Source: Streptomyces sp. CB02366 (GTDB lineage: Bacteria > Actinomycetota > Actinomycetes > Streptomycetales > Streptomycetaceae). From it: a stretch of DNA of 64,000 nt. The notes under the pieces were generated by a model. That model did not search any database, had not been told where the DNA came from, and saw only the letters and a list, made by a program, of their open reading frames with translations. The stretch covers positions 1 through 64,000 of the forward strand of contig NZ_LIVT01000001.1 of NCBI RefSeq assembly GCF_001905905.1. Reading direction: 5' to 3'. Position 1 is the stretch's first letter, and the number at the start of each line of letters is the position of its first letter. A program made the position numbers and the translations under genes. Below, piece by piece: positions 58,987-64,000 of the stretch.

Positions 58987-60417
58987 ATGCGCCGTTCCAA
59001 AATCGTCTGCACCCTCGGTCCCGCCGTCGACTCCCACGAGCAGCTCGTCGCTCTGATCGAGGCGGGCATGAGCGTGGCCCGTTTCAACTTCAGCCACGGC
59101 TCCCACGAGGAACACCAGGGCCGTTACGACCGCGTCCGCAAGGCGGCCGCCGAGACCGGCCGCGCGGTGGGCGTGCTCGCCGACCTCCAGGGCCCCAAGA
59201 TCCGCCTGGCCAAGTTCGCCGAGGGCCCGGTCGAACTGGTCCGCGGCGACGAGTTCACCATCACCGCCGAGGACGTCCCCGGCGACAAGTCGATCTGCGG
59301 CACGACCTACAAGGGCCTGCCCGGCGACGTCGTCAAGGGCGACCCGATCCTGATCAACGACGGCAACGTCGAGCTGAAGGTCGTCGAGGTCGAGGGCCCC
59401 CGGGTGAAGACCATCGTCATCGAGGGCGGTGTCATCTCCGACCACAAGGGCATCAACCTGCCCGGCGCGGCGGTCAACGTCCCGGCCCTGTCCGAGAAGG
59501 ACGTCGAGGACCTGCGTTTCGCGCTGCGGATGGGCTGCGACCTGGTCGCCCTCTCCTTCGTCCGGGACGCCGACGACGTCAAGGACGTGCACAAGGTGAT
59601 GGACGAGGAGGGCCGCCGGGTTCCCGTCATCGCCAAGGTGGAGAAGCCGCAGGCGGTCGAGCACATGGAGGGCGTCGTCGCGGCGTTCGACGGCGTGATG
59701 GTGGCCCGCGGCGACCTGGCCGTCGAGTACCCGCTGGAGAAGGTCCCGATGGTGCAGAAGCGCCTGGTGGAGCTGTGCCGGCGCAACGCCAAGCCGGTGA
59801 TCGTGGCGACCCAGATGATGGAGTCGATGATCACCAACTCGCGGCCGACCCGCGCCGAGGCGTCCGACGTCGCCAACGCGATCCTGGACGGCGCGGACGC
59901 GGTCATGCTCTCGGCCGAGTCCTCGGTGGGCGCGTACCCGATCGAGACGGTCAAGACGATGGCGAAGATCGTCGTCGCCGCCGAGGAGGAACTGCTCTCC
60001 AAGGGCCTCCAGCCGCTGGTCCCCGGCAAGAAGCCCCGTACGCAGGGCGGTTCGGTGGCCCGCGCGGCCTGCGAGATCGCGGACTTCCTGGACGGCAAGG
60101 CCCTGGTCGCCTTCACCAAGTCCGGCGACACGGCCCGCCGCCTCTCCCGTTACCGCACGGCCCAGCCGATCCTGGCCTTCACCACGGAGGAGGCCACCCG
60201 CAACCAGCTCGCGCTGAGCTGGGGCGTCGAGTCCTACGTCGTCCCGCACGTGGACAACACCGACGCGATGGTCGACCTGGTCGACGCGGAGCTGCTGAAG
60301 CTGAACCGCTACAACGACGGCGACACGATGGTCATCACCGCCGGCTCGCCCCCCGGCGTCCCCGGCACCACCAACATGGTCCGGGTCCACCACCTGGGCG
60401 GCGGCGAGCGGGACTGA
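58987..60417 (+). CDS. pyk: Pyruvate kinase
   Basis: 476 residues. MRRSKIVCTLGPAVDS opens the barrel. Substrate and metal sites are seen in MSVARFNFSHGSHEEH, LADLQGPKIRLAKF, SEKDVEDLRFALRMG, KVEKPQAVEHM and MVARGDLAVEYPLEKVPMVQ. The conserved PVIVATQMMESMI and PTRAEASDVANAILDGADA follow. It transfers the phosphate of phosphoenolpyruvate to ADP. It is one of the two pyruvate kinases usual in Streptomyces. A 102-bp gap after ackA carries an AT-richer stretch (near 58930-58980) that may be its own promoter. Confidence 0.97.
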   Translation: MRRSKIVCTLGPAVDSHEQLVALIEAGMSVARFNFSHGSHEEHQGRYDRVRKAAAETGRAVGVLADLQGPKIRLAKFAEGPVELVRGDEFTITAEDVPGDKSICGTTYKGLPGDVVKGDPILINDGNVELKVVEVEGPRVKTIVIEGGVISDHKGINLPGAAVNVPALSEKDVEDLRFALRMGCDLVALSFVRDADDVKDVHKVMDEEGRRVPVIAKVEKPQAVEHMEGVVAAFDGVMVARGDLAVEYPLEKVPMVQKRLVELCRRNAKPVIVATQMMESMITNSRPTRAEASDVANAILDGADAVMLSAESSVGAYPIETVKTMAKIVVAAEEELLSKGLQPLVPGKKPRTQGGSVARAACEIADFLDGKALVAFTKSGDTARRLSRYRTAQPILAFTTEEATRNQLALSWGVESYVVPHVDNTDAMVDLVDAELLKLNRYNDGDTMVITAGSPPGVPGTTNMVRVHHLGGGERD

Positions 60418-60500: not shown

Positions 60501-60848
60501 TCAGCCGTCGCCCCCGTCCGGGGACGACGGCTCCAGCTCCACCAGCAACGACGTGAGATCGCCGTGTTCCCGTGCCAGCTCCAGGACGCGCACCATCGCC
60601 GCGACCCCGGCATGCCGGGTGATCACCAGGTCGGGGCAGTGGAAGTGCAGACGCTCGTACTCCCGCGTCTCGCTGTCCATCCAGCGCACGACCGCCGCCG
60701 GCGTCAGGAACGTCGCGCTGAAGCGCCGCCCGTCCTCCAGGGTGACCAGCACGTCGACGTCCTCGACCGTCGCCTCGTCGTCCTCCTCGCCGAGCATGAA
60801 CACCGCGTCGAAGTGCGGGGTCCTGACGAGGTGCAGCGCATCACCCAT
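60501..60848 (-). CDS. Small acidic protein, candidate immunity protein
   Basis: 115 residues, no Lys, about 24 Asp/Glu against 9 Arg, so strongly acidic. I do not recognise the family. A strand-rich pattern (HFDAVFMLGEEDDEATVEDV, then DVLVTLEDGRRFSATFLTP) is followed by helices (GVAAMVRVLELAREHGDLTS). Its ATG lies inside the end of the large upstream gene: ATGGGTGA contains both the start and the TGA, an 8-base overlap, so translation is coupled. Tight coupling of a small acidic gene to the 3' end of a large modular secreted-type protein with a basic tail is the hallmark of polymorphic toxin-immunity pairs. The role is inferred from this context only. Confidence 0.65.
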   Translation of the reverse strand: MGDALHLVRTPHFDAVFMLGEEDDEATVEDVDVLVTLEDGRRFSATFLTPAAVVRWMDSETREYERLHFHCPDLVITRHAGVAAMVRVLELAREHGDLTSLLVELEPSSPDGGDG

Positions 60849-63800
60849 AGATCTTCTTCAGCCGCTTGATGACCTTGTCCTCATTGTTCTTGTCGGACTT
60901 CGCCACGATCAGCCAGCCGTCCTCCGCCTTCTTCACGAAGAGCCGGGCACCCTTGCGCGACCGGAAGTAGATGATGCCGGTTCCGGTCAGGCTCTTGTAC
61001 TCGCCACCCGGCATGTTGCCCTGCTTCAGCTGGGCGAACATGTTGTCGAAGTCCACCTGGAGCTTCTGGTTCTTGGTGGCCTCCTGCGCCGCGGTGATCA
61101 GCGCCGAGTCGTCGCCGATCGCCGAACGCATGCAGACCGCGGGCTTGTCCGCGGCGCGCAGGGTGGGGCCCGAGGCGCGTGCCGCGCTGAACCCCGCCAG
61201 GTCCCCGGCGAGGCCGAGCAGGCAGGAAGCCCCCGAACCCGCCTTCTTGGTCTGCTCGATGACCTTCCGCAGCCGGTCCAGCGTGTGCTTGGCGGTCACG
61301 GACTTGTCGAGGAACTTGGCGATGCCGCCGCCGATCTTGATGACGGCGCTGGTGACGGCGGGGATCTTGCCGACGAGGGCCACGAAGCTCACCGCGTTGA
61401 CGAGCGTCCACAGGCATCCCTCGACGTCGCCCTCGGTGAAGCACTTCTTGGCGTCGGTCCAGCCCACCAGGTCGATCAGGACCTGACCGCCGTTCGCGAC
61501 CACCCAGTCCAGCAGGTCCTGCCCCGCCAGCGCCTTGGCGGCGCGGAACTCGTCGACGCAGACCTGGCCGCAGGCAGCCAGGAGGAGCGCCTCCTCGTCG
61601 GTCCCGAGCTCGGGCCCGGTGTCCACCGACCCGGCGTCGACCCGCTTCTGGCGCGCTTCGGCGTCCCGCTGCCTCTGCGCCTCCTCCGCGCGGTCGGCGG
61701 CCTGGTCGGCCTGGGTGGCGTAGTTCACCGCGTCGGCCGCGGCCCCCTCGGCGACCACCGCGTCCTGTTCGGAGTCCGTGGCGATGCCGTCGGCGGTGTT
61801 CGCGTCCGCCTCGGCGGCCGAGGCCGCGCTGCGGGCGCCGGCGGCGTCCTTCTCCGCCTCCGTGGCCGACGCCGAGGCGGCGGCCGCCTCGTCGGCGGCC
61901 TCACCGGCCGCGACCTTCGCCGCGAGCGCGTCCTCGTTCGCCTTCCGGTCGTACTCGACCGTGGCGGCCTCGGCTTTGCGCGCCGCATCCGCCGCCTTCT
62001 TGGCCTCGGTGGCCGAGATGCGGGCCTGCGCCAGCGACGCGGCGGCCTTCGCCGCCCAGTCCGCGGCACGGGCGGCCGCCTCGGCAGCCGCCTTGGCGTC
62101 GGCGGACGCCTTCGCCGCGAGCGCCGCCGCCTCCACAGCGGCCTTCTTCGCCTGGTCGGCCTTGGCCTGGGCGAGAGCCGCCTGCTGCTCGGCCAGGGTC
62201 TTCGACGCCTGACCGGTGAGCACGGCCAGGCCGGCCGACGAGTCGGTGTCACGGTAGGGCGATCCGAGTTCGATCGCATCGTTGGCGGGCCGGATGACCT
62301 GGGCCGCGGAGTCACGGGCCGCGACGGCCGCCTGGGCGGTGGCGTACGCGAATCCGGCGGTGCGGATCGACGCGGCCTGCGCCAGGATCGCCTCGCTCTT
62401 CGCCGCGGCCGCGTCCTGCCGGGCCTTCACGGCCTTGGCCGCGGCCTCCTTCGCGAGCGCCTCCGCCCTGACGACGTTCTGCGCGGCGGCCTCCGAGGCG
62501 TCGATGGCCTCGGCCGCGGCGGCGTGCGCCTTCTTCACGGCCGCGCCGGTCCTCGCGGCCGCGGCGGCGGCGCCGTCGGCGGCCGACTGCGACCGGGCCG
62601 CGGCCCCCTCCGAGCGGGTGGCAGCGGCACGCGACGCGATCGACGCGGTGGTCGCGTCGTTCGCCGCCGACCGTGCGGCGGAGGCGTGGCCGGCCGCCGC
62701 GTCGGCGGCCGAACGGGCCTCCACGGCCGCCTGACGGGTCTCCGCGGCGGCCGAGGTCCCCACGGCGGTTGCGGCCGCCGCCTCCAGTGCGCGGGCGCGG
62801 CTCTCCTGGGCCTGCTGGTTCCGTTCCGCGGCCAGCGCGGCGTCGCGGGCCTCCATGGCCCGTACCGACGCCTGGACGGCCTCGTCGCTCTTGGCATCCG
62901 CGGCCTCCCCCGCCGTCCTCGCGGCGGACAGGGCGGTGGCCGCAGAAGCACGTTCCTGGACCGCGCGCTTCTCGGCGGCCTCGGCCTTGGCCCGCTCGGC
63001 GTCGGCACGACGGCGCTCGGCCGCCGCGGTGTCCCGCTCGGCCTCGGCCGTCGCGCGCTTGGCCTTCGCGTCGGCCGCCGCGGTCTTCGCCTCCGCCTCC
63101 GCGGCTTCGGCCTTGGCCTGCGCGTTCTTCGCCTTGGTGGCGTTGTCCGCCGCCAGCTTCGCCTGGAGGGCGGCCCCCTCGGCAGCGGCCTTGGCCTGGG
63201 ACTCGGCCTCCTCCGCCGCCTTGCGGCGGAACTCCGCCTTCGAGGCGTGCGCCTGGGTCTCGGCCAGCGCCATCAGCGTCTTGCTGTCGGCCGCCGAGGC
63301 GCGGGTCGCGTTGGACGCGGTCTCGGCCGCCTTGGAGACGGCCAGGGCGGCGGCCGCCGACGCCTTCGCGACCTGGACGCCCTGCTGCGCGTACATCAGG
63401 CCGCGACCGCGCGGCAGTCCGGCCGCGTCGGCGATGGTGTACGCCGCCTGCTTGGCGCTCTCGGCCCGTGCGGCCTCGTTCTGTGCGGCGAGCGCGGCGC
63501 GGGAGGACACGAAGACCCGGCCCTGCGCGCGGGCGCGGGCAGCCTCGATGTCCGCCTTGACCTTCGCGAACTCGGCGGCGGTGGGGTAGAACTGCGTGCT
63601 GCTCGGCGACTGCTTCAGCCAGTACGCCTGCCAGTCGGTGAGCCGGCTCGCGATGATCGACTGCCCCAGCGCCTCTCCGAGCGCCTGGGTGGCCACGGTG
63701 AGGTGGCGCGATGCCTTGGCCTCGGCCGTCATGATCGCGTCGCGCTGCGCCTTCTGCCCGGCGAGCTCCGCCTGCCACTCCGTGGAGGCGACGACGACCT

Positions 63801-64000
63801 CGTCCGTCAGGACCTTGTGCGGGTCCTGCGGGTTCTCGGTCGCGCAGGAGGCGAAGCGGGCCTTCAGCGCCTCGACGTCGACCCGGAACTCCATGCTGTC
63901 CGGGGCGGGTGCCGACGTCGGGAAGCCTCCGTGCTGCAGGAAGAGGCGCGCGTCGTCCGCGTACATCGGGTGCATGAACGTCATGTCGTCCAGCGCCCGG
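60841..64000 (-). CDS. Large Ala-rich coiled-coil protein with basic C-terminal domain, putative polymorphic toxin (5' end outside window)
   Basis: The frame is open to the window edge; an in-frame ATG at 63984 is probably internal, since the codons before it (R-A-L-D-D) continue similar sequence. In the visible 1050 residues, an N-terminal part (YADDARLFLQHGGFP, later GLPRGRGLMYAQQGVQV) leads into about 550 residues of Ala/Glu/Lys heptad-like coiled coil. A segment with Cys pairs (AACGQVCVDEF, KKCFTEGDVEGCLWTLVNAV) precedes a hydrophobic stretch (SFVALVGKIPAVTSAVIKIG), as in pretoxin regions of other actinobacterial polymorphic toxins. The final 55 residues (IIYFRSRKGARLFVKK to VIKRLKKIYG) are very basic, compact and unidentified, and look like the effector domain. 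Confidence 0.75.
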   Translation of the reverse strand, partial: RALDDMTFMHPMYADDARLFLQHGGFPTSAPAPDSMEFRVDVEALKARFASCATENPQDPHKVLTDEVVVASTEWQAELAGQKAQRDAIMTAEAKASRHLTVATQALGEALGQSIIASRLTDWQAYWLKQSPSSTQFYPTAAEFAKVKADIEAARARAQGRVFVSSRAALAAQNEAARAESAKQAAYTIADAAGLPRGRGLMYAQQGVQVAKASAAAALAVSKAAETASNATRASAADSKTLMALAETQAHASKAEFRRKAAEEAESQAKAAAEGAALQAKLAADNATKAKNAQAKAEAAEAEAKTAAADAKAKRATAEAERDTAAAERRRADAERAKAEAAEKRAVQERASAATALSAARTAGEAADAKSDEAVQASVRAMEARDAALAAERNQQAQESRARALEAAAATAVGTSAAAETRQAAVEARSAADAAAGHASAARSAANDATTASIASRAAATRSEGAAARSQSAADGAAAAAARTGAAVKKAHAAAAEAIDASEAAAQNVVRAEALAKEAAAKAVKARQDAAAAKSEAILAQAASIRTAGFAYATAQAAVAARDSAAQVIRPANDAIELGSPYRDTDSSAGLAVLTGQASKTLAEQQAALAQAKADQAKKAAVEAAALAAKASADAKAAAEAAARAADWAAKAAASLAQARISATEAKKAADAARKAEAATVEYDRKANEDALAAKVAAGEAADEAAAASASATEAEKDAAGARSAASAAEADANTADGIATDSEQDAVVAEGAAADAVNYATQADQAADRAEEAQRQRDAEARQKRVDAGSVDTGPELGTDEEALLLAACGQVCVDEFRAAKALAGQDLLDWVVANGGQVLIDLVGWTDAKKCFTEGDVEGCLWTLVNAVSFVALVGKIPAVTSAVIKIGGGIAKFLDKSVTAKHTLDRLRKVIEQTKKAGSGASCLLGLAGDLAGFSAARASGPTLRAADKPAVCMRSAIGDDSALITAAQEATKNQKLQVDFDNMFAQLKQGNMPGGEYKSLTGTGIIYFRSRKGARLFVKKAEDGWLIVAKSDKNNEDKVIKRLKKIYG

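What the first reader, a model, noticed from the sequence alone, without database searches (positions are those of the whole stretch)
60501..64000. Undescribed polymorphic toxin/immunity-like pair next to pyk
Seen: a protein longer than 1050 residues with a 550-residue Ala-rich coiled coil, a Cys-pair plus hydrophobic pretoxin-like segment, and a short terminal domain of about 52 residues with net charge near +9. It is followed, with an 8-base ATGGGTGA overlap, by a 115-residue protein with no Lys and net charge near -15. Known: modular toxins end in a small variable toxin domain and are followed by a cognate, often acidic, immunity gene. Inferred: the terminal domain (YFRSRKGARLFVKK...VIKRLKKIYG) is a toxin of a family I cannot name, perhaps an RNA-binding or RNase fold, and the 115-residue protein is its inhibitor.
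Basis: partly seen in the sequence, partly recalled or inferred. Interest (0 to 1): 0.72.

Follow-up and report, generated by a model that had tools for sequence, protein, structure and literature searches.

The report
Secreted RNase-fold toxin with its antidote
A Streptomyces genome carries, next to a central-metabolism gene, a large probably secreted protein whose swappable tip looks like a bacterial RNA-cutting toxin and is followed by a small acidic antidote-like gene; it is a well-supported but untested new toxin and immunity pair of a known general kind.

Summary
The carrier runs past the window: 1278 aa, signal-like N-terminus, Ala-rich coiled coil, pretoxin module, toxin tip of about 97 residues (not 52). 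Relatives of the tip sit on three carrier types (this coiled coil, HINT-ended, RHS-like); in 18 of 18 tail-bearing places a relative of the 115-aa gene follows. The same pretoxin module also carries other tails with other small genes, including barnase-barstar. AlphaFold2 with Foldseek/VIA places the tip in the RelE/YafQ/YoeB (BECR) fold. No Pfam, NCBIfam, PHROGs or PADLOC family was found. The pyk site is polymorphic in Streptomyces: 8 of 59 resolved sites hold a carrier, and 16 distinct site alleles with other tails were read. Two toxin-less strains keep the immunity gene there, each oriented as in its nearest toxin-bearing relative. The mechanism (RNase killing competitors) is inferred from fold and invariant Arg/Lys/Tyr; sequence homology to RelE was not shown, nor was binding. 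Delivery is unknown; no umbrella-type ALF repeats were detected. New member of a known kind.

The parts
60844..61134 (-). Toxin domain, last 97 aa of the carrier; RelE-superfamily (BECR) fold predicted; 17 columns invariant in 14 aligned tails (domain numbering): L12 A16 G39 N40 G43 L49 Y56 R58 G62 R64 F66 K79 K82 V88 I89 Y96 G97
   Evidence: alignment A1; AF2 model pLDDT 79.8, H-H-E-E-E-E-H; Foldseek/VIA; no Pfam/NCBIfam family
60501..60848 (-). Immunity gene, 115 aa, net charge -15, no Lys
   Evidence: a relative follows the tail in 18 of 18 tail-bearing places
60841..60848 (-). 8-base stop/start overlap ATGGGTGA between toxin and immunity genes
   Evidence: same overlap in G100, L-9-10 and G167, 11 bases in the HINT-borne ones read
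61243..61650 (-). Pretoxin module with CGQVC Cys pair and hydrophobic helices; shared with carriers bearing other tails
   Evidence: about residues 1-136 of the 269-aa query recur with other tails
61135..61242 (-). Variable linker between pretoxin module and toxin, before CMRSAIG
61675..63498 (-). Ala-rich coiled-coil stalk (approximate limits, read by eye; no coiled-coil program was run), broken near 62210-62310
   Evidence: translation
63499..64000 (-). Part of the N-terminal region of the carrier; it continues outside the window to an ATG at window-frame 64677 with a signal-peptide-like start
60841..64000 (-). Carrier gene as far as the window holds it (whole gene 60841-64677, 1278 aa)
58987..60417 (+). 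pyk (pyruvate kinase), one border of the polymorphic insertion site

Best explanation
It is a polymorphic toxin with its immunity gene. Steps: (1) the 1278-aa carrier is exported through an N-terminal signal (inferred from sequence); (2) a long Ala-rich coiled coil and a pretoxin module carry an exchangeable tip (exchange shown); (3) the last 97 residues enter a competing, probably related, actinobacterium and act as a RelE/YafQ-fold endoribonuclease, most likely cutting mRNA or tRNA with a basic active site (candidates R58, R64, K79, K82, Y96 of the domain) (inferred from predicted fold and conservation); (4) the 115-aa acidic protein, overlapping the toxin gene by stop-start, binds the basic toxin and protects producer and kin (inferred from linkage, charge and retention). 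The pair moves as one cassette between carriers (shown) and occupies a polymorphic site between pyk and a DUF6114/DUF6230 cluster (shown).
For: Tail in 14 of 392 Streptomyces genomes plus L-9-10 and 2 plasmids, one in a protein annotated as a HINT polymorphic toxin and one downstream of such a gene, on three carrier types. Immunity relative directly after the tail in 18 of 18 places. Tail and immunity distances correlate over 13 pairs, Mantel r 0.90, p 0.0001. Same pretoxin module with other tails and other small genes, including barnase (PDB E 2.9e-20) followed by barstar (Pfam E 1.7e-18), and Tox-REase-7. Same chromosomal site with other tails in 16 alleles. Two sites with immunity but no toxin. 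RelE-superfamily fold: V. cholerae YafQ Foldseek prob 1.00, E 9.4e-3; VIA Z 8.0, rmsd 2.7 over 84 residues; 47 of the 50 VIA rows are toxins of toxin-antitoxin systems.
Against: No activity or binding was measured. Only one of five AF2 models was confident (79.8; others 53-59) on a 3-sequence alignment, no Foldseek hit passes E 0.001, and unrelated Rag/Ragulator chains stand among the top rows. Profile comparison with E. coli YoeB, RelE and YafQ gave nothing and a shuffled-control alignment was inconsistent. ParE has the same fold but inhibits gyrase (PMC11980606, passage), so RNase is not forced. Many immunity relatives stand alone. None of 59 randomly drawn pyk sites holds this tail or immunity: the allele is rare.
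Confidence: 0.8

Rival explanations
1. Same toxin/immunity pair, but the RelE-like fold acts as in ParE, inhibiting DNA gyrase, or binds without cutting RNA.
For: ParE shares the fold without the RNase residues (PMC11980606, passage); ParE chains are among the VIA rows.
Against: Invariant R58, R64, K79, K82, Y96 resemble the basic set of RNase members; the top VIA rows are YafQ and an H. pylori toxin (Z 7.5-8.0), rows named ParE2 score 5.5-5.8; differences under 1 in Z are ties.
Confidence: 0.12
2. The carrier is a divergent umbrella-particle protein (UmbC) and works inside an Umb particle with UmbA/UmbB.
For: Streptomyces secreted coiled-coil stalk with variable toxin (PMC11062931); carriers sharing the pretoxin module include two with ALF repeats over the Pfam cut-off and three with sub-cut-off ALF matches, E 0.002-0.02.
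Against: No ALF match in the 1278-aa protein at E up to 0.1 nor at this locus in the genome search at E up to 10; no simple Tat pattern near the start; the four upstream neighbours read are FG-GAP, a protein without Pfam match, DUF6114 and DUF6230. In one search, 9 of 14 control genomes also gave sub-cut-off matches, so those weigh little.
Confidence: 0.2
3. Intracellular type II toxin-antitoxin module that happened to fuse to a coiled-coil protein, with no role in competition.
For: RelE fold and adjacent acidic partner resemble RelBE-type modules.
Against: Gene order is toxin then partner, whereas in E. coli K-12 relB, yefM and dinJ precede their toxins; secretion-signal-like N-terminus; tail also on HINT and RHS-like carriers; the small protein matched no Pfam or NCBIfam antitoxin family.
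Confidence: 0.04
4. Not a toxin system: structural coiled-coil surface protein with an unrelated acidic neighbour.
For: No curated family matched.
Against: 18 of 18 linkage, carrier exchange, barnase-barstar on the same module.
Confidence: 0.02

Closest known systems
Polymorphic toxin systems (Zhang et al. 2012, PMC3482391; passages read)
   Same: Long carrier, exchangeable C-terminal toxin, immunity gene directly downstream, cassette exchange between HINT, RHS and other carriers, stand-alone cassettes.
   Different: Toxin and immunity matched no Pfam or NCBIfam family; this carrier matched no Pfam repeat family.
Tox-RelE / BECR-fold RNase tips (PMC3482391, passages)
   Same: Predicted helices, then a four-strand sheet, then a helix; conserved basic residues ([KR], R noted there for Tox-RelE).
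   Different: The text reports a single instance of classical RelE in a polymorphic toxin (Paenibacillus elgii) and the table pairs Tox-RelE with Imm54; here the immunity protein matched no Pfam family and similarity to E. coli RelE/YoeB/YafQ was not significant.
YafQ, YoeB, RelE, HigB toxins of type II TA modules
   Same: Fold: best VIA Z 8.0 to V. cholerae YafQ.
   Different: In E. coli K-12 these are small free proteins with the antitoxin gene upstream; here the domain is the tip of a 1278-aa carrier and the partner gene is downstream.
Umbrella toxins (UmbC) of Streptomyces (PMC11062931; abstract, section 10 and passages read)
   Same: Streptomyces coiled-coil stalk with variable toxin and downstream immunity gene.
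   Different: No ALF repeats detected, no simple Tat pattern, no UmbA/UmbB-like neighbour recognised among the four genes read upstream; FG-GAP neighbour instead.
Barnase-barstar pair on the same pretoxin module (G230, locus L036)
   Same: Related pretoxin module (40% identical), RNase tip, inhibitor gene next.
   Different: Different toxin and inhibitor families, HINT domain between module and tip.

Membership tests
Polymorphic toxin system | C-terminal toxin domain exchanged between carriers | tested here: met
   tail on three carrier types (PT-HINT confirmed by Pfam, RHS-like end judged by eye); same pretoxin module with other tails
Polymorphic toxin system | specific immunity gene directly downstream | tested here: met
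   18 of 18 tail-bearing places; Mantel r 0.90 over 13 pairs; genomic linkage only, protection untested
Polymorphic toxin system | export of the carrier | tested here: inconclusive
   signal-like N-termini by hydropathy and charge only; no experiment
Polymorphic toxin system | toxicity neutralised by the immunity protein | not testable with these tools
   needs expression assay
RelE superfamily / BECR fold | helical segment followed by four-stranded meander sheet | tested here: met
   predicted model only, pLDDT 79.8, pTM 0.74, one of five models; Foldseek and VIA
RelE superfamily / BECR fold | sequence homology to RelE/YoeB/YafQ | tested here: inconclusive
   hhalign none; shuffle test mixed, aligned places inconsistent; no Pfam member
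RelE superfamily / BECR fold | ribonuclease activity | not testable with these tools
   conserved basic residues only
[quoted passage not shown]
   no PF03752 match in the full protein or at this locus at E up to 10
Umbrella toxin UmbC | Tat signal | tested here: inconclusive
   a simple twin-Arg pattern is absent from the first 35 aa of each candidate start; a crude test, start codon uncertain
Umbrella toxin UmbC | UmbB within ten genes | tested here: inconclusive
   only four genes in about 5 kb upstream examined, Pfam only
Type II toxin-antitoxin module | free toxin with its antitoxin gene beside it, upstream in relBE, yefM-yoeB and dinJ-yafQ | tested here: not met
   toxin is the tip of a 1278-aa protein and the partner is downstream (order in E. 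coli K-12)

The most novel reading that the evidence does not exclude
The pyk to DUF6114/DUF6230 interval is a standing weapons-and-antidotes site of Streptomyces, in which whole carrier cassettes are gained, inverted, re-tipped and deleted while the immunity gene is kept; and the carrier with its co-occurring FG-GAP beta-propeller gene forms a secreted particle distinct from umbrella toxins, delivering a RelE-fold RNase into competitors.
Probability: 0.3. Interest if true: 0.72.

Novelty: new member of a known kind. Interest (0 to 1): 0.52.

Why it matters
If true, it adds a toxin family and an immunity family that the curated libraries searched here lack, gives the toxin a testable RNase fold, and points to a chromosomal site where gain, exchange and loss of a toxin, with retention of the antidote, can be read across Streptomyces species. 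That makes the question of whether resistance outlives the weapon directly testable, with natural toxin-less, antidote-bearing strains as test material, and it suggests a secreted toxin platform in Streptomyces besides, or distantly tied to, umbrella particles.

Tried and rejected
Curated libraries gave nothing for toxin or immunity: Pfam, NCBIfam, PHROGs (window sequences only), PADLOC (window sequences only); the rows shown were weak (best E 0.0045, a kinase/aldolase model for 3 of 13 immunity proteins), scattered and far below cut-offs. PDB profile searches gave no credible relative. The immunity model is poor (pLDDT 66.5; best VIA Z 4.3), so no fold is claimed for it. Sequence homology of the tail to E. 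coli YoeB, RelE, YafQ by hhalign failed. A profile alignment against 7 RelE-family sequences (3 from E. coli, 4 of the 20 Streptomyces YoeB loci) with 200 shuffles each was reached by at most 1 of 200 for 3 of 7, but these 3 aligned at inconsistent places (2 onto the first helix of YoeB), so it is not used. The placing of R64 on RelE R61 / YoeB R65 and of K82 near YoeB H83 is my reading by eye, with catalytic residue numbers recalled (R61 and R81 of RelE are also in PMC3482391).

Phages and IMG/VR: no tail in phage records or viral contigs (30 pattern stretches, none confirmed); one viral contig holds an immunity relative after a 30-codon tail relic (L053). Class-wide search: 2 of 394 genomes, one of them the window's own, the other a fragment in the same genus, so the tail looks largely confined to Streptomyces; the draw was thin. 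UmbC membership considered and not accepted.

Rows dropped before counts: G373 has no partner in the 13-pair Mantel test because its immunity sequence was not in A2; the relics L045, L049, L050, L055 were left out of A1; G251 (a 32% match over residues 23-269, not found by the tail query) and L053 (found through its immunity gene) are not among the 18 places; ADI96-02 (L002) and G100 share a contig length and are counted once; L009, L016, L024 were dropped from the Pfam call after an error.
Full report
What is there. The window is from Streptomyces or very near it: the best 'genome contigs' relatives are Streptomyces sp. ADI96-02 (92% over the 269-aa query) and Streptomyces sp. L-9-10 (77%). 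On the minus strand an open frame runs from the window's end to a stop at 60841. Reading on in the assembly gives an ATG at window-frame 64677 and a 1278-aa protein. Its start, basic residues followed by a hydrophobic stretch (MHTRPSPGRHRPRGVWPRLLTTTALATALAVVV), looks like a secretion signal; 17 of the 18 carrier loci examined (not L087) offer a start codon followed within about 40 residues by a 12-residue stretch of mean hydropathy 1.88 or more (no signal-peptide program was available, start codons are uncertain). Then follow an N-terminal region, a long Ala-rich coiled coil, a module with the CGQVC Cys pair and hydrophobic helices, and the tail. The 115-aa ORF at 60501-60848 overlaps the carrier's end by 8 bases.

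The tail is an exchangeable cassette. With the last 104 aa as query, 14 of 392 Streptomyces genomes match, plus two Streptomyces plasmids and L-9-10; a class-wide profile search found 2 of 394, the window's own genome and a fragment in G725. The carriers differ. In the window, G100/ADI96-02, L-9-10, G167 and G373 it is the coiled-coil/pretoxin type. In G242, G080, G081, G284 and plasmid NZ_CP109401.1 it follows a VLAG..PVLVHN HINT end (PT-HINT confirmed by Pfam for the plasmid protein, E 1.7e-18). In G096 and G384 it follows what I read by eye as an RHS-type end. G023, G022, G051, G280 and plasmid NZ_CP109164.1 hold short, broken or 5'-cut copies. On that plasmid the copy lies downstream of a gene with RHS, PT-HINT and Ntox21 matches, as stand-alone toxin cassettes do. 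Seventeen columns are invariant in 14 aligned tails, among them Y.R...G.R.F, K..K and the final YG.

The small gene goes with it. In 18 of 18 distinct tail-bearing places (window, G100, L-9-10, G167, G373, G242, G080, G023, G081, G284, G022, G096, G384, G280, G051, two plasmids, G725) a relative of the 115-aa protein follows at once; for G725 the tail match is partial, and in G280 and G051 the toxin copy is broken. Pairwise distances of tail and immunity correlate over 13 pairs (Mantel r 0.90, p 0.0001); this shows joint descent, not contact. Tails are net positive (+3 to +8, 14 of 14) and immunity proteins net negative (-7 to -18, 13 of 13).

The pretoxin module goes with other tails. With the 269-aa C-terminus as query 67 of 295 genomes match; the high-scoring matches mostly end by residue 130-185, before the tail. 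Reading the ends shows many different tails, most but not all followed by their own small ORF (for example none listed for L015 and L024). Of nine such tails scanned with Pfam, one carries PT-HINT plus Tox-REase-7, one PT-HINT plus the ribonuclease family, one DUF4160, one PT-HINT without a named toxin, and five nothing. The ribonuclease one is barnase (best PDB match E 2.9e-20) and the next gene is barstar (PDB 1.8e-12; Pfam 1.7e-18): a textbook toxin-inhibitor pair on a related module.

The site is polymorphic. In the window the order is pyk, immunity, toxin carrier, FG-GAP gene, an unnamed gene (up2), DUF6114, DUF6230. At the same site other Streptomyces hold carriers with other tails: convergent with pyk in L119 (pyk position), L120, L121, L122, L125, L127, and in pyk's direction in L124, L126, L128, L130, L131, L132, L134; L135 (G167) has this tail in pyk's direction. 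These 13 were chosen because they matched the module. An unselected survey used G001-G060 of the 121 genomes: pyk and the up2 cluster could be joined in 59 of 60; 8 of 59 hold a carrier (convergent G006, G022, G033, G046, G049; codirectional G004, G009, G038), 51 do not. In 41 of the 51 the up2 match begins within 560 bases of the stretch start (about 200 of them pyk), in 10 something else lies between. Five of the 8 are also among the 13, so 16 distinct alleles with other tails were read (ends of G006, G033, G046). None of the 59 sites holds this tail or its immunity family. By eye, G019 has a lone relative of the gene that follows the G072 tail, and G057 a carrier-like fragment.

Antidote without toxin. 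These two were found through the immunity search. G076 (L138) has pyk, then an immunity relative (67% identical to the window's) convergent with pyk, then up2: no carrier. G250 (L139) has the immunity gene in pyk's direction and no carrier. In a FastTree tree the G076 protein groups with the window, G100 and L-9-10 (support 1.0) and the G250 one with G167 and G373 (0.995); their orientations match the window's and G167's. The bases around the G250 start still resemble the toxin-immunity junction of G167 (43 bp, 79%, E 2.6e-6, 17 of them before the start codon); no such relic was found in G076. The simplest reading is loss of the toxin in place with the antidote kept. Beyond the site, immunity relatives are commoner than tails: 92 of 392 genomes against 14 of 392 (a profile against a single sequence, so the sensitivities differ). 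Of the 30 best immunity loci read, 14 have the tail next to them and 16 do not, though L101 shows by eye a short toxin relic; 12 of the 16 form one clade together with the HINT-borne G284 protein (0.981), and those looked at stand in mixed surroundings. Whether that clade protects against anything is unknown.

Fold and mechanism. AlphaFold2 on window, ADI96-02 and L-9-10 tails gave one confident model (pLDDT 79.8, pTM 0.74; the other four 53-59): two helices, four strands, one helix. Foldseek's best PDB match is V. cholerae YafQ (prob 1.00, E 9.4e-3, TM 0.54/0.61), then RelE and YoeB toxins; no match reaches E 0.001 and unrelated Rag/Ragulator chains appear between. VIA-align 2 on those candidates gives Z 8.0 (rmsd 2.7, 84 aligned) for YafQ; 47 of the 50 listed entries are toxins of toxin-antitoxin systems, the other three being two Cami1 entries and one Txp40 entry. 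The tool warns that Z near 8 can mean only a common arrangement; the uniformity of the list is what persuades me. I infer a metal-independent RNase of BECR type. Candidate active-site residues are the invariant R58, R64, K79, K82 and Y96. Sequence comparison with E. coli YoeB, RelE and YafQ did not confirm homology.

Delivery. Umbrella toxins are the nearest described Streptomyces platform (PMC11062931: abstract, section 10 and passages read). This carrier fails their ALF test and a crude Tat test, and UmbB nearby was not settled. Yet carriers sharing the module include ALF-bearing ones above the Pfam cut-off (G230, 1490 aa; G026, 1399 aa), and sub-cut-off ALF matches lie in those of G167, G091 and G026 (E 0.002-0.02; 9 of 14 control genomes also gave sub-cut-off matches at E up to 10), so a distant tie is possible. 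An FG-GAP gene with its own signal-like start (by eye) lies 55 bases upstream of the carrier here. With the window's FG-GAP protein as query a relative is found upstream in 7 of 7 loci whose carrier N-terminus matches the window's at E below 1e-75 (the window itself, L002, L003, L004, G006, G033, G046) and in 1 of 18 others (L123, 36%), so it may be a partner.

Literature. Zhang et al. 2012 (PMC3482391, passages) list Tox-RelE as a BECR toxin with Imm54 and mention a single classical RelE instance. Gerdes-type RelE/ParE overview PMC11980606 was seen in passages only. Searches for Streptomyces with polymorphic toxin plus immunity protein/toxin domain, BECR/RelE, orphan immunity, FG-GAP and pyruvate kinase listed no title on this family or site; the listings were capped (20 of 24, 15 of 18, 12 of 53) and most papers were seen as listings only. 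The 77 UmbC toxin families of PMC11062931 are in a supplement I could not read, so this tail could be among them.

Verdict. A toxin-immunity pair of the polymorphic kind on strong genomic evidence, with a toxin family of probable RelE fold and an immunity family that the libraries searched do not hold, at a polymorphic site of Streptomyces. Interest is moderate: the kind is known; the site with retained antidotes and the unexplained carrier are the fresher parts.

Noticed in passing
L007:5834-6754 (window-frame 64733-65653, minus): FG-GAP beta-propeller gene (306 aa, signal-like start by eye) 55 bases upstream of the carrier; a relative lies upstream in 7 of 7 loci with this carrier N-terminal type and in 1 of 18 others.
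   Followed up: partly
L105-L111, L113-L117 (some also read as L140-L144, L147): A clade of stand-alone immunity-like genes in Streptomyces without a toxin tail beside them.
   Followed up: partly
L138 (6214-6519), L139 (6274-6609): pyk sites with the immunity gene but no toxin carrier, one in each orientation.
   Followed up: yes
L101: Immunity gene preceded, by eye, by a short out-of-context relic of this toxin (VVGKSDTANESK).
   Followed up: no
L028, L029, L030, L034, L035: About 2450-2630-aa open frames in which the pretoxin module is followed by a region like the carrier's N-terminus and coiled coil, i.e. apparently tandem carriers.
   Followed up: no
L036: Barnase-type toxin behind a HINT domain on a related pretoxin module, with barstar next.
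   Followed up: yes
L052: Plasmid with an RHS/PT-HINT/Ntox21 gene and, downstream, a short copy of this toxin with its immunity gene and annotated IS transposases.
   Followed up: no
G019 (L166) and G057 (L204): Carrier-less pyk sites with, by eye, a lone relative of another immunity gene (G019) and a carrier-like fragment (G057).
   Followed up: no
L014, L019, L122: Same-site carriers with a HINT domain and an unnamed toxin tail beginning NCRTIT, with a 153-154-aa downstream gene.
   Followed up: no
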